In this document: positions 15,365 to 37,410 of the stretch, piece after piece | How positions within the stretch are numbered: the stretch's first letter is position 1 | Layout of the letters: each line of letters starts with the position of its first letter | DNA from: Clostridia bacterium | GTDB lineage: Bacteria > Bacillota > Peptococcia > DRI-13 > SM3-B62 | Direction of reading: 5' to 3' | Assembly: GCA_018433675.1 (NCBI GenBank) | Contig: JAHDQS010000014.1 | Span: forward strand, 1-64,000 | Length of the DNA: 64,000 bases | Program-made: the position numbers and the translations under genes | The notes under the pieces: generated by a model | Told to the model about the DNA's origin: nothing | Databases searched by the model: none | What the model saw: the letters and a program-made list of their open reading frames with translations, nothing else

Positions 15365-15394
15365 TATCAATCGGGTGCTTCAGAACTAGTCCGT
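15365..15394 (-). repeat. 30-bp direct repeat, right copy
   Basis: The partner of 10936-10965 (28 of 30 identical). Here it encodes the last residues RTSSEAPD and the stop of the membrane-fusion gene, and continues two bases past the stop. A repeat at the 3' end of a gene with a copy 4.4 kb away is the arrangement left by site-specific integration, but no recombinase lies between the copies. Confidence 0.85.
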
Positions 15395-16803
15395 ATGAAG
15401 TGGATTAAATTAATTACAAAGATGCGAATGGGATTATAGAAAAACAGTATAACAGCCGGAACCAACAGCAAGACAAACCTGCCAAAAACGGTGTTGGCAG
15501 AGAGAATCAAGACGCCCAACCAACGGTTTCTGTGAGTGTAGATGCCATAAATCGCTTCCCGCGAAATGGTTTTTTTCATCGCTCCTACCTGTGACATAGG
15601 AGGATAGTTGTCAATATCCACCGTATACTGACCGTTTTCTTCGGCATTCACCCGTTCAACATAAACCACCTTATTGTCCTGGAAAAGCACGATATCCCCT
15701 ATATTTATTGGTTCAATATGATCTATTCTCCTGAAATAGGCAAGATCATTTTCCATAATGTGAGGCTCCATCGTATTGGATTGAAAAACATACGGAACGA
15801 CATTAAATATAGTAATCTCTTTACCTGGCTGGGTGGCAGAGGATATGAGAATAAAAGCATTGACGACAAGCGTTATGCAAATAATACCAACAAATAAAGC
15901 TGTTATAGCAAAGTCTATGATATTGTTGCTTGCTACGGACTTCTCTTTGTGAGTGAGTAGATGAATTTTCTTCGCTGGGTCTGCAATTTTAAATACGGAT
16001 GTTCCTTCCGGTATCACGTAACCGTAAGTCTCCTCCGGCATGTTATAATACTTGGCAACGCTTTGTGCTTTAAAAACACATATTAGCGTACAAACAAAAA
16101 CAATTGCAGCCGAAAAAAGCAAATATTTCGCTTGTGAAGAATCCACAAGATTTAAAGCATTTTGCATCATAATCCTGTCAGATGTAAGTGTAAAATATCC
16201 CGTAACAGATTTGACCACAAGCAAAACAATTGTAAAGATGAAAATAAAGTAACGTGCATTCTTTGTATCACGTATATACAAGGACGAAGTAATAGAAACA
16301 ATCCCTATAACAAGTATATCTATTAGACCGGCTATATATAGCGCCGGCATATATTCATGAATAAATGTGTACTTTATCAACAGTGTCAAACCTATAGTAA
16401 ATAAAAATCCACCGCTATACATCATCCAAACTGAGTAAAGGAATGCAAGCAGTTTAGAAAAAATCATAGATAGCGGCGAATAACCCATTTTTGTGAGCAA
16501 ATACCACCGATTCTTTCTGATTTCCACAAAGGAAAGGTATTCATAATAGATTATAAAATATAGTACATACAAGAAAAACGCTACTGTGACATATGTATAC
16601 AAAGTGGAGAAGTAACTCGTTTGAATGAACTGAGGAAACATGTCGCCCAGTACACTTCCCGACATAGTACGCATAAAAAAATGTACGGCAAAGGAAACGA
16701 GTCCCGCTAAAATCGCAAAGGCATTTTTTCTTTTAGAACTGATAGAGTTTTCAATATAAGCATGCCGTAATTCTTTTTGAAAGTAGCTATTTTTATAAAT
16801 CAT
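15367..16803 (-). CDS. ABC-2-like membrane protein fused to a catalytically altered S26 signal-peptidase-like domain
   Basis: A 478-residue protein. Residues 1-245 carry about six transmembrane helices in an ABC-2-permease-like layout (an early pair, then helices near 67-90, 115-145, 155-175, 186-204 and 228-246). Residues 290-425 resemble SipW-type peptidases: a membrane anchor (about 298-322), then VVPYVFQSNTMEPHIMEND, aligned with VVQSGSMSPAFEVG of the adjacent SipW, and PINIGDIVLFQDNKVVYVERV. The nucleophile Ser is Thr344, and the general-base His falls on Tyr or Val (about 381), so peptidase activity is doubtful. A last helix lies near 440-460. It is the final gene of the SipW operon and overlaps the ATPase-like gene by 11 bases. 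No described family with this fusion is known to me. Confidence 0.75.
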   Translation of the reverse strand: MIYKNSYFQKELRHAYIENSISSKRKNAFAILAGLVSFAVHFFMRTMSGSVLGDMFPQFIQTSYFSTLYTYVTVAFFLYVLYFIIYYEYLSFVEIRKNRWYLLTKMGYSPLSMIFSKLLAFLYSVWMMYSGGFLFTIGLTLLIKYTFIHEYMPALYIAGLIDILVIGIVSITSSLYIRDTKNARYFIFIFTIVLLVVKSVTGYFTLTSDRIMMQNALNLVDSSQAKYLLFSAAIVFVCTLICVFKAQSVAKYYNMPEETYGYVIPEGTSVFKIADPAKKIHLLTHKEKSVASNNIIDFAITALFVGIICITLVVNAFILISSATQPGKEITIFNVVPYVFQSNTMEPHIMENDLAYFRRIDHIEPINIGDIVLFQDNKVVYVERVNAEENGQYTVDIDNYPPMSQVGAMKKTISREAIYGIYTHRNRWLGVLILSANTVFGRFVLLLVPAVILFFYNPIRIFVINLIHFIRTSSEAPD

Positions 16804-17821
16804 AATCTCTTATTATTTCCTCATACGCATTTTTTACCTTTTGGGGGTTAATTTCTATTCTCGCGGGCTCAAACCCTGCTTCCACTATTTTATTACAGAT
16901 GTGTTTCGGGTTTACTGCCACATCTTGGTCAGTACGAACAATTAGGCTATTATCCTCCAGACTATATTGATAACAAGGAAGCAATATTCTGAGCGTTCTA
17001 GCCATTTTCTCAATATTACTGTCCTGTATTTTAAGAACGATTCTGTCGTACTCACGGCAAAAATCACGCACAGTGCCCTGGTAAAAGACATTGCCGTTCA
17101 TTAGAAAAAGTATATGACTACAGACCTTTTCAATGAGTTCCGGAGTGCTTGTTGCTATAACGAGAGTCTTCCCTCTTTCAATAATGAGTTTTGCGATTTG
17201 CTGCATGGCGTCGATTAGTACGTCGTCAAAAGAATAATCAGGGAAATTATGAACAACCAACTGGCTTTCCGAATAAGCGGCCACAAGCATGATGATAACC
17301 GCTTTTTGCTCCCTGGAAAGCATATAAATGGGAGTCAGGGAAATTCGTTTAAGCCCGATGCTGATTAAGTACTCTAGCACCCGTTCTTGATGCTCAACCT
17401 TATTTCCGGAAAGTTTAACCGTGGCAAACATTAAAAATTCCAAGACGTTCATGTTATTGTAAAGCATCTCGGAGCTACCAATATAAAAGACATGGGGAAG
17501 GGTAATACGTTTATGCCTCATCATACCGCGTTCGATAAGAACACATTTTCCGGAGCGATAAGGCTTAATATTGGCCATTATTTCTGCTAGTAGTTTAATC
17601 TCAAAAAGGGAATTTCCGGTTATACCCCATACCTGACCTTTTTGAAAAGATAGCCCAATGTCATGCAAAACCGGTTGAGGAGGCTTCCCATCTTTAAGAA
17701 AGAACTCACCAGAGGAAAGATGCTCCATGAATACTACGTTTTGGATGTCTTTTTGTTGTTCATTCTTTTGCGTATTAAGAACTTTCTTACGCAATATTTT
17801 TTCTCTCCTTTTGATAGGCAC
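16793..17821 (-). CDS. Degenerate ABC-type ATPase (pseudo-nucleotide-binding domain)
   Basis: A 342-residue protein with the overall strand order of an ABC ATPase (VLHDIGLSFQKGQVWGITG, then NVLEFLMFATVKL, then HILFLMNGNVFYQGTV) but with every catalytic motif altered. Walker A reads GITGNSLFEI at 67-76, lacking the Lys-Ser/Thr pair. The signature reads LSREQ (168-172). Walker B reads LVVHNFP (188-194), with His-Asn for Asp-Glu. The switch His is replaced in IATSTPEL (about 222-229). ATP hydrolysis is therefore unlikely. Residues 250-342 form an extra C-terminal domain. The GTG at 17821 overlaps the SipW stop (TAGTG); a TTG at 17794 with AAAGGAG upstream is an alternative. It pairs with the downstream permease-like fusion. 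Confidence 0.75.
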   Translation of the reverse strand: MPIKRREKILRKKVLNTQKNEQQKDIQNVVFMEHLSSGEFFLKDGKPPQPVLHDIGLSFQKGQVWGITGNSLFEIKLLAEIMANIKPYRSGKCVLIERGMMRHKRITLPHVFYIGSSEMLYNNMNVLEFLMFATVKLSGNKVEHQERVLEYLISIGLKRISLTPIYMLSREQKAVIIMLVAAYSESQLVVHNFPDYSFDDVLIDAMQQIAKLIIERGKTLVIATSTPELIEKVCSHILFLMNGNVFYQGTVRDFCREYDRIVLKIQDSNIEKMARTLRILLPCYQYSLEDNSLIVRTDQDVAVNPKHICNKIVEAGFEPARIEINPQKVKNAYEEIIRDYDL

Positions 17822-18324
17822 TACTTTAACGGGACCTTGGCAACAAACTTAGCTAATATCTGTTGCGGCTCCAAAAGCTCCCGATCCGGTGAATTTATTG
17901 GATTATCACCTTTGGTACGGTATTTGATCTGCCCATCCTCTGCCTTTATGACTTCAATAATTCTATGGGTGACGGTCGCACCATCTTTTGTTTTGAATGT
18001 TACAATGTCATCCACCTTCAACTTAGAACTGTCTTTAGGAGTTCTAGATATAATAACTGTCCCAACTTCAAACGCAGGCGACATACTGCCGGATTGAACC
18101 ACGTAGAACTGATAGCCAAGTAGGCTGGGTGTTTCTCCCTTGCTTTTTGCCAGCAATACCGAATAAAGTGTAAAAAGCAAAGTCAAAACTATTATTGCAA
18201 AGACAAACAGTCCGGTAGCTTTTAGCAACAGACTTTTCTTTTTCCCTTTCCCCTTTTTTGCTTGCCGTAGTTCCTCACGCATCATTTCAATTTGTTCATC
18301 TGTTGTAAAAGCAGTCTTTTGCAT
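17821..18324 (-). CDS. sipW: SipW-type signal peptidase I (S26B)
   Basis: A 167-residue membrane peptidase from the ATG at 18324, chosen because AAGGCGG lies upstream and the in-frame extension to 18351 is Arg-rich and lacks one. One transmembrane anchor (about 36-58) precedes the catalytic region with Ser80 in VVQSGSMSP, His120 in ATVTHRI and Asp in TKGDNP, the Ser-His arrangement of the ER/archaeal type used by SipW. SipW enzymes cleave the special signal peptides of TasA-like fibre proteins. Two, perhaps three, such substrates are encoded just upstream, and two degenerate transporter-like genes follow. The stop overlaps the next start. Confidence 0.93.
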   Translation of the reverse strand: MQKTAFTTDEQIEMMREELRQAKKGKGKKKSLLLKATGLFVFAIIVLTLLFTLYSVLLAKSKGETPSLLGYQFYVVQSGSMSPAFEVGTVIISRTPKDSSKLKVDDIVTFKTKDGATVTHRIIEVIKAEDGQIKYRTKGDNPINSPDRELLEPQQILAKFVAKVPLK

Positions 18325-18440
18325 GATGCACCGCCTTCTTCGTCCTTGCAAGGCAAAGCTTGATACTCTTCAAGAATAAACTATGACAAGACAGGTGATT
18401 ATTCGCAGAATAACAGCCGCCGTTTCCGGCAGCTGTTATC

Positions 18441-18977
18441 CTATAATTCTAATTCTTGGGTTCCGGTTACGGACACCGTAAGAGCCGTTCCATAGCCAGC
18501 ACCGGCATAATTGATATCCACGAGATCGTTGCTGGGCCAGTTGATTTCAACGGTGTATGTATGTTCCTGTCCGGTAGTATTTAGAGCAAACCCATCGTCA
18601 ATTGTTATCGTGCCGGTCCCGGTATTTGTTCCTAGGGCAGTGGTGCCCTTCTTTACCGTAACAACCAACGGTTCAATGGCACTTTTCCCCGAAGCAGCAG
18701 CAATTGCAACAGTAATATCAAGATCCATAGCGGTTTCGCTAATAACCTCACCATTATAGTTCTTTACGCTAAAACTCATGGTCTTGGTTTCTGTCGGCGC
18801 TATCTTAACATTCTCCGTAAAAGTGTCGGTTCCTCCCTCTAAAAGTATGAACTCTTTCGCCACAACACTACCTTCAGCAAGATCATCAATGGTGGTTGTG
18901 TACAAAGCAAGAGTGGCGGAGTTGACGGAAAATACTATTAGCACCAAGAGTATAAGTATTACCAGTGTTTTTTTCAT
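18441..18977 (-). CDS. TasA/camelysin-like secreted protein, SipW substrate
   Basis: A 178-residue exported protein from the ATG at 18977, with AGGGAGGT upstream. The signal region ends in NSATLALYTTTIDDLAEGSV, the hydrophobic-then-A-x-LA-x-Y type seen in SipW substrates. The mature part is a Thr/Val-rich beta-sandwich with KEFILLEGGTDTF and NVKIAPTETKTMSFSVKNYNGE, closely repeated in the paralogue at 19888-20811. TasA relatives form extracellular fibres or are surface proteases (camelysin); no protease motif is visible, so a fibre or matrix role is favoured. A c-di-GMP riboswitch lies directly in front of it. The sipW gene follows after 116 bases. Confidence 0.85.
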   Translation of the reverse strand: MKKTLVILILLVLIVFSVNSATLALYTTTIDDLAEGSVVAKEFILLEGGTDTFTENVKIAPTETKTMSFSVKNYNGEVISETAMDLDITVAIAAASGKSAIEPLVVTVKKGTTALGTNTGTGTITIDDGFALNTTGQEHTYTVEINWPSNDLVDINYAGAGYGTALTVSVTGTQELEL

Positions 18978-19023
18978 TTTTATACCTCCCTGCAATTTTT
19001 AATGAAATATGCAATATATTTGT

Positions 19024-19114
19024 GGCAATGGCAACTGGCTGTCATATCCAAAACGGACTTAGACCCTATAGCTTTGTGCTCCAAACTTTCGCTTGGTTTA
19101 CCCTTGCACTGCAT
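19024..19114 (-). promoter_or_regulatory. Cyclic-di-GMP-I (GEMM) riboswitch
   Basis: On the minus strand the tract reads, in order, the conserved elements of class I c-di-GMP riboswitches: GCAAGGGTAAACC, a GCGAAAGT tetraloop-capped stem, GGAGCACAAAGCTA, GGGTCTAAG, a short second hairpin (GTCC/GGAT region), ATGACAGCC and the closing strand AGTTGCC, which pairs with GGGTAA. It ends 46 bases before the ATG of the TasA-like gene, with no clear terminator between, so control may be at ribosome access or by an unseen structure. Whether c-di-GMP raises or lowers expression cannot be read from sequence. Confidence 0.88.
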
Positions 19115-19119
19115 TTTCA

Positions 19120-19146
19120 ATTATATCGCATGGAGTAAAACATCAA
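19120..19146 (-). promoter_or_regulatory. Promoter of the riboswitch-led transcript
   Basis: On the minus strand a perfect -10 box TATAAT (19120-19125) is preceded after 15 bases by TTGATG (19141-19146). Transcription would begin near 19113, exactly at the 5' edge of the riboswitch, so the second TasA-like gene, sipW and the two following genes can be expressed independently of the first two genes. Confidence 0.65.
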
Positions 19147-19213
19147 TTGAAAAATATCGAGCAATTAATACGCTACAATATACACCCCCTCTTTTTAGTC
19201 ATCAGAATTTGCA

Positions 19214-19858
19214 CTATTCGATGTCGGTAAGTATTTCCGGATTGAACTCCTCTTCATCAGGGCTATTTTCTGTATCCTCAAAGGTATCCTCTTCTTCATC
19301 AAGGTTAGTTTCCGTATTTTCTGAGATGTCATCCTCTTCATCAAGATTGCTTTCTTTATCCTCTAATTCAACCACCTCTTCGTTGGGGTTGTCTGCATCT
19401 TCCGGTGAAGTATCCGCCGCTTCTGCGGGAATATCCATCGGATCGTTGGGCTGCCCAAGGATGTCATCTGTATTTTCATCTGCAACCGACTCGTTGCCGG
19501 ATTTCTGCTGATTCCCATCATTCTCGACTGCTTCAGTCGATTCACTGCCTTTTATGTCAGCTATGGAACCATCAGCGACCGTCGTGTTACCGTCTTGTTC
19601 CGCTAACGGCAACTGTTGCTCCAACGCCAGTTGCTGTTGCTCTAACAGTTGTTCCTCAAGCAGCTTTTGTTCCAGCAACTGTTGTTTCAGTAGCATTTCT
19701 TGCTGGTACGCGTCATATCTGGCTTCAATAATTATGGAATTCGGTGTCACAGCTACTGAAGAACCGGAGGATGTATAGTATCCGGAAAGGGTTTTCCCGG
19801 TAGCAGATATCAGAATGGAAGAAAAAAGGAAAACAATAATAAGGATTTTTTTTCTCAT
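19214..19858 (-). CDS. Secreted acidic coiled-coil protein in the SipW operon
   Basis: A 214-residue protein with a signal peptide (KKILIIVFLFSSILISATG) continuing into KTLSGYYTSSGSSVAV, which resembles the signals of the flanking SipW substrates. Residues about 50-85 form a Leu/Gln/Glu coiled coil (MLLKQQLLEQKLLEEQLLEQ). The rest is strongly acidic and disordered, ending in three degenerate 14-residue units (NLDEEDDISENTET, NLDEEEDTFEDTEN, SPDEEEFNPEILTD). No family recognised. It may be an accessory or anchoring protein of the fibre system, analogous in position to TapA of Bacillus but not visibly homologous. Confidence 0.7.
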   Translation of the reverse strand: MRKKILIIVFLFSSILISATGKTLSGYYTSSGSSVAVTPNSIIIEARYDAYQQEMLLKQQLLEQKLLEEQLLEQQQLALEQQLPLAEQDGNTTVADGSIADIKGSESTEAVENDGNQQKSGNESVADENTDDILGQPNDPMDIPAEAADTSPEDADNPNEEVVELEDKESNLDEEDDISENTETNLDEEEDTFEDTENSPDEEEFNPEILTDIE

Positions 19859-19887
19859 TTTATGTCCTCCCTGCGTTTATCAGCTGT

Positions 19888-20811
19888 TTAAAGAATACAA
19901 TCGCGTTCATGGGTAACTTCCGCAGCTTGGCCATTCACTGTTACGGTTGTCATCAGGTTGGTATCCGAACCAATCGCATTTCCACCAAACTGCACGCTAC
20001 CGCCTGCAGGAATGTCCTGGTTCCAGGTTGCGGGATGCAGGAAACGATGCTGCCCTCCAGGCAAACCAGCGCTGTCATCCACGGCGTTCCAAACTTGATA
20101 TATTTCAGCAGCCAACAAAAACTCAAGAGCCCAGTTTGTTATAACTTCATCGGTGTTGTTTGTAATTGTAATAGAAAAGGCGTATCTATCGGTCCCGCCT
20201 TGTTGCCATGGTGTTCCCGTCTGGAATAAGACTTCAATGTCACTTGGTTCCGGAGGGTCTGGTGGATCGCCCCCTCCGAGCGGCAACTGCGATGCAGCTG
20301 CAGAAACATTGATAGTAGTACCAAAATTATTGCCTGCATAATTAATATCGATTTCGTCATTGCTGGGCCAAAATATTTCTACTGTAAAAGAAGCACTTTG
20401 CCCGGTTGCTGATAGCGGGAAAGCTCCTGATACATCAACGGAGCCCGTTCCTTCCACTGTATCAATTACAGTGCCCCCCATGTCCTTGATCCTGATTATC
20501 AGAGGCTCAATGGCACTTTTCCCTGGTGTTGGCATAACATCAAAGGTAAGATCGTAGTATAGATCAGTTTCTGTAACCAGACTGCCTTCGAAATTCTTCA
20601 CGGCAAATTGCCAGGTTATGGTCTCGGTGGGCGCAATCTTAATATCATTTTGAAACGTATCCGTACCATCTTCCAGGAAAATAAACTCTTTACCGACAAC
20701 GCTACCCGATGCCATATCATCTAGCGTGACAGTATAACTTGCTAGCGTTCCGGCTAAAAGCGAACTGCATATTGCTAATATTAACATTAGCACAACAAAT
20801 GCTTTTTTCAT
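19888..20811 (-). CDS. TasA-like secreted protein with C-terminal CBM2-like cellulose-binding domain
   Basis: A 307-residue protein with two parts joined by a Gly/Pro linker (GGGDPPDPPEPS, about residues 183-194). The N-terminal part has a SipW-type signal (LLAGTLASYTVTLDDMASGSV) and a TasA/camelysin-like domain similar to the protein at 18441-18977 (KEFIFLEDGTDTF, IKIAPTETITW). The C-terminal ~110 residues look like carbohydrate-binding module family 2: ITNNTDEVITNWALEF, QVWNA, TWNQDIPAGGSVQFG, with Trp at strand positions used for binding crystalline polysaccharide. It is the first gene of the operon. The combination suggests fibres or surface tips that bind cellulose or chitin. Confidence 0.82.
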   Translation of the reverse strand: MKKAFVVLMLILAICSSLLAGTLASYTVTLDDMASGSVVGKEFIFLEDGTDTFQNDIKIAPTETITWQFAVKNFEGSLVTETDLYYDLTFDVMPTPGKSAIEPLIIRIKDMGGTVIDTVEGTGSVDVSGAFPLSATGQSASFTVEIFWPSNDEIDINYAGNNFGTTINVSAAASQLPLGGGDPPDPPEPSDIEVLFQTGTPWQQGGTDRYAFSITITNNTDEVITNWALEFLLAAEIYQVWNAVDDSAGLPGGQHRFLHPATWNQDIPAGGSVQFGGNAIGSDTNLMTTVTVNGQAAEVTHERDCIL

Positions 20812-21161
20812 AATATTCCACCCTTAATTTTGAAAATTATTTTTTTGCAAAATGTCGTGTGTAGCATAATGCAATCGTAATATCTATTAATATTCTAAAT
20901 ACTAGAAAAACTTACCGAGTAATTATGCCATAAAACTTCCAAAATATCAATACATTTTGATGTTTTTTGATGAGTTTTTTAAAGTTTTTTTTAATTCATT
21001 ATACAATTCAGGACTATTGCCCCGGGTCTTTATCCAAGGTAACTATTTTATCCCCAGCCATTCCCAACACCAGCCACGGTCCCAACGGCAGGTCTATCTT
21101 TTCTTTTCTGGAGGTTTAAACAAGGGTATAGCATGTTTGACCTTCCGAATACTTGACAGCC
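20812..21161. other. AT-rich intergenic region before the SipW operon
   Basis: These 350 bases hold no credible intact gene. On the minus strand a 34-codon open stretch without a start (roughly 21110-21010, containing IDLPLGPWLVLGM) may be a gene remnant, vaguely like the end of a prepilin peptidase. The part near 20820-21000 is very AT-rich with long T and A runs and should hold the promoter of the operon; a TATAAT occurs near 20998-21004 on the minus strand but without a good -35 box. No riboswitch was recognised here. Confidence 0.45.
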
Positions 21162-22415
21162 TTAAGCATCACATCCCTTTGCCATAATGACCAAAAAGAA
21201 GGCAACAATTCTACTGATAGAATAAACCAGTCCTGTGCAAACAGGAATAATCATCATAACCCCTATCCATGAAAAAGCTTGAAAGACCGGTATAAAACTT
21301 ATTACCAGAATCCCGGGGAGTGTCATTAGGAATAAAAACTTTCTCAAGGCAAGATGCTCCTCCTCGTTCTGCCGGCAAAGCAGTTGAATGAACTCTGAAC
21401 CCAAACATTCCTGCCAGTACAAGCCGACAAAGCCGGCAAGAACAAAGGATAACGTTAGCCAAACAAACAATTTCCCACTGTCTTGAACGTCAATAATCAC
21501 AAAACCGCAAATAAATACAAACAGGAGATATTGGCCTACACGTCGACTATCCCTTAGTATTGATTTAAGACACACCTCAACCAAACCATTGATCGCATTA
21601 CGTTTTCTAAAAATAATATTTGATCGGGGAAACAGCCAGGGACGTTTCCTCTGTTTTTTGGGCTTTTTGACGCTTGCCCCGGAGAGTCCCAACAAGAAAC
21701 TTACATGTTTTAATTTCTCACCCTGTTCCCGCTCCACGTCTGCAAAAAAACTGTGTATATGGTTCAGCCTCCTTATACTTAACAATACGGAAGCGATGGA
21801 TAACAGCAAACTTACGGTTAGAAACACTGGAAAGTTACCAATAATGTAAGGAAGCAGGATAATAAAACACATGCTCCCCGCAACCATCATACCCCATAAA
21901 ATGATGAACAGCCGCCAACCACAAAAGCGTATGGATAAGAACTGCTTTGCCAGTCCCAAAAATACTTTGACCAGAAATGTTATGGTAAAAAGCAGGAACA
22001 GTTCCCTTTGGGAAAACTGATGATGACTAAGGATCAACGGAGCCAACAAAAGAAAAAAGAACCCGGTAAAAAGGAAACTACGAAAATACGAATAGATAAG
22101 ACCGTACTGCATAATCTTTTTAATCCACTGCCTTTGACCCAGCAAAAAAAGCTGATCAGCTTCCTGAAGGAATATTCTCACCGATCCCGACCATGCCAGT
22201 AAAAAACAGACGGCAAAGAACAAGCTCACCGGTAAAAACTCAAGCCAATCAGGAGTATTCCTCCACCAAGATAAATATTGATTTATCCCCAAAGCAATGG
22301 CAGGAATCACAATATATAAAGCCACGGTCCAGTCAATGACCATTCTCCAAATGCCGACCTGAAATTTTAATTCTGCAAAGAGGCGTTTAAAAAATACTCT
22401 AAGCGGTGTAATCAT
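21162..22415 (-). CDS. ecsB: EcsB-like ABC transporter permease
   Basis: A 417-residue membrane protein with about nine transmembrane segments, fitting the EcsB family: an N-terminal RLFAELKFQVGIWRMVIDWTV stretch, DWLEFLPVS between the first helices, and IFLQEADQLFLLG near residue 83. It overlaps the ATPase stop by 4 bases, so the pair is translationally coupled. In Bacillus, EcsAB affects protein secretion, intramembrane proteolysis by RasP and biofilm formation. The neighbourhood of a SipW/TasA-like operon on the same strand is suggestive but not proof of a link. Confidence 0.88.
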   Translation of the reverse strand: MITPLRVFFKRLFAELKFQVGIWRMVIDWTVALYIVIPAIALGINQYLSWWRNTPDWLEFLPVSLFFAVCFLLAWSGSVRIFLQEADQLFLLGQRQWIKKIMQYGLIYSYFRSFLFTGFFFLLLAPLILSHHQFSQRELFLLFTITFLVKVFLGLAKQFLSIRFCGWRLFIILWGMMVAGSMCFIILLPYIIGNFPVFLTVSLLLSIASVLLSIRRLNHIHSFFADVEREQGEKLKHVSFLLGLSGASVKKPKKQRKRPWLFPRSNIIFRKRNAINGLVEVCLKSILRDSRRVGQYLLFVFICGFVIIDVQDSGKLFVWLTLSFVLAGFVGLYWQECLGSEFIQLLCRQNEEEHLALRKFLFLMTLPGILVISFIPVFQAFSWIGVMMIIPVCTGLVYSISRIVAFFLVIMAKGCDA

Positions 22416-23122
22416 GCTCTCTTCTCCAAAATAAAATCAAAGCAATCAAAAAGTGACGCTTCGGGCAGACAACACTCTGCCCTGATCCCGGCCAGGGTTC
22501 CTTGGGTTATCAAGCGACCGTCGGCAATCAAGATAAAAGAATCACATATCCTCTCTGCAATATCAAGTTGATGAGTCGAAACAAGCACGCCGGCCCCCCG
22601 CATCCTTTCCTCCTTCAACAATCCCATGAACTCCTTTGTTGCACGAGGATCAAGTCCAACAAAGGGCTCGTCTATGATATAGACATCCGGTTCAAGCAAA
22701 AGCCCGATTATAATCATGAGCTTTTGCTGCATACCCTTGGAAAAGGTCGTTGGAAAATGGTGTTTTACTTCCTGCATTCTAAATGTGCTGAGCATCTGCT
22801 CGGCCTTTTTTAAAAATTTTTTTCTTTCAAGCTCATAGACAGCTGCCGCCAATTCAAGATGCTCCCACAAAGTTAGTTCCTCATAAAGAACCGGCTGTTC
22901 AGGTATATAGGCATAATTCTTGTTTTCTCCCAGAAAGTGCACACCTCCCACCATTTCAGGCAGCAAACCGACAATAGCCTTGATGACAGTACTTTTACCG
23001 GCACCGTTAGGGCCGATGATACCAACTAATTCGCCCTTTTTCAGCAATATATTTATATTATTGATTGTATCTTTTTTACCCATATATCCGGCCTGTTTGA
23101 TCTCAACCCGTAACAAACCCAT
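22412..23122 (-). CDS. ecsA: EcsA-like ABC transporter ATP-binding protein
   Basis: A 236-residue ATPase with Walker A GPNGAGKST (about 36-44), signature region FSKGMQQKL, Walker B VYIIDEPFVGLDP and switch His in STHQLD. The EYELERKKF linker and the modified signature match EcsA. It is the first gene of the EcsAB pair and energises the partner permease. Confidence 0.9.
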   Translation of the reverse strand: MGLLRVEIKQAGYMGKKDTINNINILLKKGELVGIIGPNGAGKSTVIKAIVGLLPEMVGGVHFLGENKNYAYIPEQPVLYEELTLWEHLELAAAVYELERKKFLKKAEQMLSTFRMQEVKHHFPTTFSKGMQQKLMIIIGLLLEPDVYIIDEPFVGLDPRATKEFMGLLKEERMRGAGVLVSTHQLDIAERICDSFILIADGRLITQGTLAGIRAECCLPEASLFDCFDFILEKRA

Positions 23123-37137: not shown

Positions 37138-37202
37138 CCCATCTTAGAGTTCTTCCCTAATAAACGAAACAACCCCCCTTCATTTATTGAGCACTACTTT
37201 CT

Positions 37203-37353
37203 CAAGGCAGGTCTCCTGACTCACGGCTTTTCCTCCTCCCTGCCTTCCCAGATTAATCCAGTGGCACCATGGGGATTTGTATCCGTTTACAGTGGTGGGT
37301 CCGTGCCGGATTCTCACCGGCTTCCCTCTTCACCCTCTAAAAGGGCACCTTGA
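37203..37353 (-). promoter_or_regulatory. Cobalamin riboswitch
   Basis: On the minus strand the standard elements appear in order: AAGGTGCCC, GAAGCCGGTGAGAATCCGGC, ACGGACCCACCACTGTAA, the conserved core ATGGTGCCACTGG, and the closing GTCAGGAGACCTGCCTT that pairs with the 5' end. It precedes btuF by about 130 bases with a terminator in between, so adenosyl- or other cobalamins should switch off the whole transporter-chelatase operon. Confidence 0.96.
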
Positions 37354-37410
37354 AATATATTAACTTATCATTGCCATTATAGACCAGAAAAAAAGAGTCT
37401 GTCAATTGAT

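What the first reader, a model, noticed from the sequence alone, without database searches (positions are those of the whole stretch)
15367..20811. SipW/TasA-like operon ending in a dead ABC-transporter pair: candidate new surface-assembly system
Seen: six minus-strand genes encode a CBM2-bearing TasA-like protein, an acidic coiled-coil secreted protein, a second TasA-like protein, an intact SipW peptidase, an ABC-ATPase-like protein without catalytic motifs, and a polytopic protein fused to an S26-like domain without its nucleophile. Known: SipW processes TasA-type fibre proteins. Inferred: the last two form a membrane platform that receives or holds substrates beside SipW, using a transporter and peptidase fold as scaffold rather than as enzymes. 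I know of no described system with this composition.
Basis: partly seen in the sequence, partly recalled or inferred. Interest (0 to 1): 0.85.

Follow-up and report, generated by a model that had tools for sequence, protein, structure and literature searches.

The report
Fibre operon with dead transporter pair
Some spore-forming soil and sediment bacteria carry a conserved operon for secreted surface-fibre proteins in which the protein-clipping enzyme SipW always comes with a transporter-like pair whose ATP site and peptidase site are both dead yet strongly conserved, which suggests an undescribed non-enzymatic platform for building surface fibres.

Summary
The pseudo-ATPase and the ABC-2/pseudo-SipW fusion are not decaying genes. 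They form one cassette with two TasA/camelysin-like proteins and SipW, kept in the same order in about 40 genomes across several lineages. In one class of 83 genomes the TasA pair, pseudo-ATPase and fusion occur in exactly the same 17. The ATP motifs are lost in every member checked. The fusion's S26 domain has an invariant Thr in place of Ser and no catalytic His. Ka/Ks is 0.05-0.11. Structure search matches the pseudo-S26 domain to S. pyogenes SipA, a catalytically dead signal peptidase homologue essential for pilus polymerisation, and the rest to ABC-2 exporters. New here: (1) the 'acidic coiled-coil' gene is the long form of a conserved mini-gene (SipW-type signal plus ~20 residues) resembling the minimal TapA donor peptide; (2) cassette SipW lost its C-terminal TM and gained a conserved cytosolic motif, while the dead copy kept the TM; (3) c-di-GMP riboswitches, apparently ON switches in four relatives, lie in or before the cassette in several lineages. 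Best reading: a c-di-GMP-controlled, ATP-independent membrane platform for processing and assembling SipW-dependent fibres. Platform function is inferred, not shown.

The parts
19888..20811 (-). CBM2-bearing TasA/camelysin-like secreted protein, 307 aa (SipW-type signal, camelysin-like domain, C-terminal CBM_2)
   Evidence: CBM_2 E 1.2e-11, 17/17 orthologues; hhalign to M73 set 96%
19214..19858 (-). Third SipW-type secreted gene, 214 aa: long acidic form of a conserved 40-55 aa mini-gene; candidate TapA-like donor-strand peptide
   Evidence: same position, ribosome-binding site and signal peptide as mini-genes in relatives; pS 0.59 vs pN 0.16 in the mature part of 13 mini-genes
19027..19112 (-). 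c-di-GMP-I riboswitch aptamer (RF01051) just upstream of the second TasA-like gene
   Evidence: 67.9 bits, gathering score 35, E 3.7e-11; one of 4 in the genome
18441..18977 (-). Second TasA/camelysin-like secreted protein, 178 aa (ATG 18977)
   Evidence: hhalign to M73 set 97%
17821..18324 (-). SipW signal peptidase with intact Ser/His/Asp; one TM only; cassette-specific cytosolic N-terminal motif TT.EQIE.MR.EI
   Evidence: NCBIfam SipW 1.5e-30; motifs; topology
16793..17821 (-). Pseudo-ATPase: ABC-2-exporter-type nucleotide-binding subunit with Walker A, signature and Walker B motifs lost (degenerate Walker A at 17588-17623)
   Evidence: Ka/Ks 0.09-0.11
15367..16803 (-). Fusion: six-TM ABC-2-like domain plus pseudo-SipW (S26) domain with C-terminal TM; start overlaps the pseudo-ATPase stop by 11 nt
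   Evidence: overlap conserved; Ka/Ks 0.05-0.11
16453..16524 (-). Conserved segment of the fusion (residues 94-117, EIRKNxWYLL..MGY.P..M..SK), read as the ABC-2 coupling helix that docks the NBD
   Evidence: among the highest conservation of the protein; invariant E94, W100, Y101, Y108, K117; coupling role inferred
15772..15774 (-). T344 codon: Thr at the SipW nucleophile position, invariant in the 25 aligned members
   Evidence: also 15 further members
20922..20950 (-). Promoter-like site upstream of the operon (TTGATA-17-CATAAT, extended -10)
   Evidence: consensus match 10/12 only; number in region near chance

Best explanation
The operon makes SipW-processed, carbohydrate-binding surface fibres. 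The two TasA/camelysin-like proteins are fibre subunits: one carries a CBM2 for binding cellulose or chitin-like surfaces, the other is probably the main subunit. The small third protein is probably a TapA-like starter that donates a short strand. SipW cuts the signal peptides. The pseudo-ATPase and the fusion form a dead ABC-2-type membrane complex that neither pumps nor cuts. It holds SipW, through SipW's cytosolic N-terminal helix, and the pre-subunits, through the substrate groove of the dead S26 domain, in one place so that cutting and polymerisation are coupled. c-di-GMP switches the cassette on in several lineages. Shown: composition, conservation, co-occurrence, loss of catalytic residues, purifying selection, riboswitches. 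Inferred: complex formation, platform function, donor-strand start, direction of the switch in the window itself.
For: Gene order is conserved in the window, 3 phylum relatives and 22 named loci, with no other recurrent neighbour. Fusion, pseudo-ATPase and TasA pair occur in the identical 17 of 83 genomes. Catalytic motifs are absent throughout. Ka/Ks is 0.05-0.11, no higher than SipW's 0.12-0.22. The fusion's best structural match is dead S. pyogenes SipA (4n31), then among others ABC-2 exporters NosFY and PmtCD; the pseudo-ATPase matches NosF and PmtC. Conservation peaks sit at the presumed NBD-TMD interface (pATP 121-132; fusion 97-108), not at the ATP site. Cassette SipW lacks the C-terminal TM in 22/22 while 14/15 ordinary SipW keep it, and cassette SipW carries a conserved cytosolic motif. 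Start/stop overlap of the pair is conserved. Mini-gene; in B. subtilis TapA residues 44-57 alone suffice for biofilm (PMC10151520). Riboswitches.
Against: No complex was modelled and no biochemistry exists. The fusion model is moderate (pLDDT 75) and its Foldseek E-values are weak (2e-3 for SipA, 0.1-0.4 for ABC-2 folds). In SipA the cleft-blocking mutation had little effect (PMC4049620), so the groove-holding step is doubtful by analogy. The window's own third protein matches the TapA peptide poorly (score 2, shuffle p 0.04). Fibre formation by these proteins is unproven. Some cassettes lack the third gene (L010, L030, L045) and the Desulfosporosinus cassettes lack the riboswitch.
Confidence: 0.6

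Rival explanations
1. Sensor or checkpoint: the dead ABC-2 pair reports secretion or surface state to the cell, with the pseudo-S26 domain binding uncut or cut signal peptides, rather than helping assembly.
For: Pseudo-enzymes often act as sensors; the pair spans cytosol, membrane and exterior; no extra regulator gene recurs nearby, so a built-in sensor would fill a gap.
Against: No output domain on either protein; c-di-GMP riboswitches already give regulation in several lineages.
Confidence: 0.15
2. Cryptic enzyme: the fusion is an active peptidase with Thr as nucleophile and another base, so one operon has two signal peptidases.
For: Thr is invariant in the 25 aligned members and a nearby Glu is conserved in nearly all, which looks like a kept site.
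Against: The catalytic His is gone in all members and the Glu is missing in L043 and L049; SipA is a precedent for a dead site that is kept without being needed (PMC4049620).
Confidence: 0.12
3. Real transporter with a borrowed motor: the fusion's TM domain pairs with an intact ABC ATPase from elsewhere, such as EcsA encoded just upstream in the window, with the pseudo-ATPase as the silent half.
For: Heterodimeric ABC systems with one degenerate site are known; EcsAB lies at 21162-23122.
Against: EcsAB is not conserved next to the cassette in relatives; only one ATPase gene is in the cassette and all its motifs, not just one site, are lost.
Confidence: 0.08
4. Decaying former transporter kept by linkage to the fibre genes, without function.
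For: All catalytic motifs are lost.
Against: Ka/Ks 0.05-0.11; invariant new residues across distant lineages; exact co-occurrence.
Confidence: 0.02

Closest known systems
B. subtilis tapA-sipW-tasA matrix-fibre operon
   Same: SipW plus camelysin-fold secreted subunits plus a small starter-like protein; subunit similarity supported by hhalign 97%
   Different: No ABC-like or pseudo-peptidase gene; TapA family model absent from this genome; no CBM2; SipW of that type keeps its C-terminal TM
Streptococcus pyogenes SipA (pilus polymerisation factor; PMC4049620)
   Same: Catalytically dead signal-peptidase fold needed for polymer assembly; top structural match of the fusion
   Different: Acts in sortase-built pili; not fused to a transporter domain and no pseudo-ATPase; Ser replaced by Asp, not Thr
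C. perfringens sipW-bsaABCRSD biofilm operon (PMC7395162)
   Same: Clostridial SipW operon whose product BsaA forms filaments
   Different: Encodes a two-component system and secreted proteins, no ABC pair described
ABC-2 exporters NosFY, PmtCD
   Same: Best fold matches of the pseudo-ATPase and ABC-type matches of the fusion's TM domain
   Different: Those are ATP-driven; here all ATP motifs are lost and the TM domain carries a pseudo-SipW

Membership tests
TapA-SipW-TasA type fibre system | ER-type SipW peptidase with Ser/His/Asp | tested here: met
   NCBIfam SipW hit; motifs SGSM, THR, GDN
TapA-SipW-TasA type fibre system | Camelysin/TasA-fold secreted subunits | tested here: met
   hhalign 97% and 96% over ~160 columns; no direct Pfam or PDB hit to TasA, so remote
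TapA-SipW-TasA type fibre system | TapA (YqxM) family protein | tested here: not met
   TIGR04087 finds nothing in this genome, B. subtilis control rings; only a short peptide resemblance in relatives
TapA-SipW-TasA type fibre system | Subunits polymerise by donor-strand exchange | not testable with these tools
   needs experiment or multimer model
SipA-like dead signal peptidase | S26 fold with catalytic residues lost | tested here: met
SipA-like dead signal peptidase | Located in a sortase pilus operon | tested here: not met
   no sortase or other gene recurs at the loci
Functional ABC-2 exporter | ABC-2 fold of both subunits | tested here: met
   (TM part weak)
Functional ABC-2 exporter | Walker A, Walker B and signature motifs | tested here: not met
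   absent from the 24 aligned members; no canonical Walker A or LSGG in 15 more
c-di-GMP-I riboswitch | Rfam gathering score | tested here: met
   67.9 vs 35 bits

The most novel reading that the evidence does not exclude
A new kind of surface-assembly machine: an ABC-2 transporter and a signal peptidase that have both lost catalysis and been joined into one ATP-independent membrane platform that couples SipW cutting to fibre polymerisation, switched on by c-di-GMP and started by a ~20-residue donor-strand peptide encoded by its own mini-gene.
Probability: 0.45. Interest if true: 0.9.

Novelty: new variant of a known kind. Interest (0 to 1): 0.8.

Why it matters
It would be a surface-fibre pathway in which two enzyme folds are kept only as scaffold, with exact gene co-inheritance that makes the role directly testable. 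It extends the SipA puzzle (why a dead signal peptidase is needed for polymerisation) to a second, unrelated fibre type. It also ties SipW/TasA-type fibres in several clostridial lineages to c-di-GMP, and gives a candidate natural minimal version of the TapA starter peptide.

Tried and rejected
No relatives in viral contigs. The SipW-cognate signal-peptide model TIGR04088 does not ring on these proteins, and TapA TIGR04087 is absent. A PDB profile search with the TasA-like set found no TasA, so the camelysin link rests on hhalign against an M73 set. EcsAB next door was considered as partner and rejected (not conserved). Decay was rejected. Promoter and terminator scans were near chance. A c-di-GMP expression platform was looked for in the window by folding: no terminator between the aptamer and the TasA2 start, so the switch direction there is open. 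The literature library holds open-access papers only; targeted searches found no description of this composition.

Full report
Observation. The six ORFs are present at the stated coordinates on the minus strand. CBM_2 is clear (E 1.2e-11). SipW is clear (NCBIfam SipW E 1.5e-30) and has its serine, histidine and aspartate. The 342-aa protein is related to ABC ATPases (HisP, GldA, PmtA/PmtC models; PDB profile search 6.5e-16). The 478-aa fusion has a C-terminal SipW/S26-like region (1.5e-08).

The cassette is real and conserved. Among 60 relatives only one full-length fusion relative appears, in another family (46% identity); a draw of 399 phylum members gives three full-length relatives. All three carry the same genes in the same order although the flanks differ. 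A scan of the GTDB collection adds 22 loci, among them several Desulfosporosinus species, Lutispora, Anaerobacterium chartisolvens, Mageeibacillus and uncultured Clostridia (L040 is the same locus as L010). In every locus with enough contig, SipW, pseudo-ATPase and fusion are consecutive; the two TasA-like genes precede them in most, lie downstream in L049, and one lies on the other strand downstream in L039. No other gene family recurs in the flanks.

Exact co-inheritance. In the class that holds G418, full-length fusion, TasA-like pair and pseudo-ATPase each occur in 17 of 83 genomes, and it is the same 17 genomes from five genera, with absences inside one genus. In the window's own order only the window genome has full-length matches to the TasA-like genes; its congener G001 lacks both them and the fusion. 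Ordinary camelysin/M73 loci in 150 phylum genomes are found in 18 genomes, of which only G054 has the fusion, so the pair belongs to this subfamily and not to SipW systems in general.

Dead but kept. In the 24 aligned pseudo-ATPases Walker A, Q-loop, signature and Walker B residues are replaced, commonly by a fixed pattern such as WGI.G.S..EIKLL; none of 15 further members has a canonical Walker A or LSGG. In the fusion the serine is an invariant threonine (T344) in 25 aligned members and 15 more, and the histidine is lost. Ka/Ks for three close pairs is 0.09-0.11 for the pseudo-ATPase and 0.05-0.11 for the fusion, against 0.12-0.22 for SipW. Decay is therefore rejected.

Structure. The fusion model (pLDDT 75) has S. 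pyogenes SipA as top PDB match and ABC-2 exporters NosFY and PmtCD among the further fold matches; E-values are weak, so this is supportive, not proof. The pseudo-ATPase model (pLDDT 83) matches NosF and PmtC. The most conserved segments are pATP 121-132 and fusion 97-108, which by established ABC-2 architecture are the NBD helical subdomain after the Q-loop and the TMD coupling helix; the assignment is inference. The pair's start and stop overlap in nearly all loci.

SipW anatomy. All 22 cassette SipW have one predicted TM and a conserved cytosolic N-terminal motif (TT.EQIE.MR.EI, relaxed in L043 and L049); 14 of 15 ordinary SipW from camelysin loci have a second, C-terminal TM. The pseudo-SipW in the fusion keeps a C-terminal TM. 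So the active copy kept catalysis and the dead copy kept the anchor, which fits a complex of the two; complex formation is inferred.

The third gene. Between the two TasA-like genes 14 of 17 loci carry a gene with a SipW-type signal, and all 17 Desulfitobacteriia-type loci examined have one. In most it is 40-55 codons, with a mature peptide near SYTSVSSFGTSIYPD. Substitutions are mostly synonymous (pS 0.59, pN 0.16 in the mature part), so it is a real gene. Placed right after the signal, it resembles TapA residues 45-57 (FHDIETFDVSLQT, PDB 6qay; shuffle p below 0.002 in four of ten; the anchoring was chosen after seeing the sequences and the peptides are related). In B. subtilis, secreting TapA 44-57 alone restores biofilm (PMC10151520), and TapA donates a strand to TasA (PMC10151520; PMC9674648). 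The window's acidic protein is a long form of this component; its own core matches TapA poorly.

Control by c-di-GMP. A c-di-GMP-I riboswitch lies at 19027-19112, before the second TasA-like gene, one of four in the 3.0-Mb genome. Relatives have one in or before the cassette: L010, L049, L039, L030 twice, L036, L046 twice. In L010, L030, L036 and L046 a terminator-like hairpin followed by U-rich sequence uses the 3' strand of the aptamer's closing stem (and sequences), the layout expected when ligand binding prevents termination, so ON; this is my reading, not a tested result. Fifteen Desulfitobacteriia-type loci have none.

Known work. Dead SipA is essential for S. pyogenes pilus polymerisation, has no peptidase activity, and mutating its former active site or its cleft has little effect (PMC4049620). 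C. perfringens SipW-BsaA makes filaments without any ABC pair (PMC7395162). Targeted full-text searches found no paper describing this composition, within an open-access library only.

Verdict. The composition, conservation, co-inheritance and loss of catalytic residues are shown. The platform mechanism is the best-supported explanation (about 0.6). Because the fibre core belongs to a known kind (SipW/camelysin), I file it as a new variant of a known kind, with a substantial chance that the accessory platform is categorically new.

Noticed in passing
   Followed up: yes
window 37189-37367 (-): Cobalamin riboswitch (127.9 bits).
   Followed up: no
window 21162-23122 (-): Intact EcsA/EcsB ABC pair directly upstream of the operon; not conserved next to the cassette in relatives.
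   Followed up: partly
L026 4990-8919, L027 5130-9332, L029 3661-5213: A GerA-type spore germination operon sits inside the cassette between TasA2 and SipW in G418 and G380, on the opposite strand; GerAB- and GerAC-like genes also lie next to the fusion in L029.
   Followed up: partly
L049 8464-12085: Rearranged cassette: SipW, pseudo-ATPase and fusion come first, then a c-di-GMP riboswitch and five secreted genes with SipW-type signals in a row, so the substrates vary while the processing core stays.
   Followed up: partly
L036 6670-7440 and L046 6850-7800: The third gene here encodes ~190-aa proteins with a folded-looking domain and no Pfam match.
   Followed up: partly
L143 3103-3735: 211-aa ORF of unknown family inserted between TasA2 and SipW in G476.
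   Followed up: no
L147 (G469) and genomes G444, G447: Weak fragmentary fusion matches, some with stops, possibly relics of the cassette; the open reading frame in L147 looks like an ordinary SipW.
   Followed up: partly
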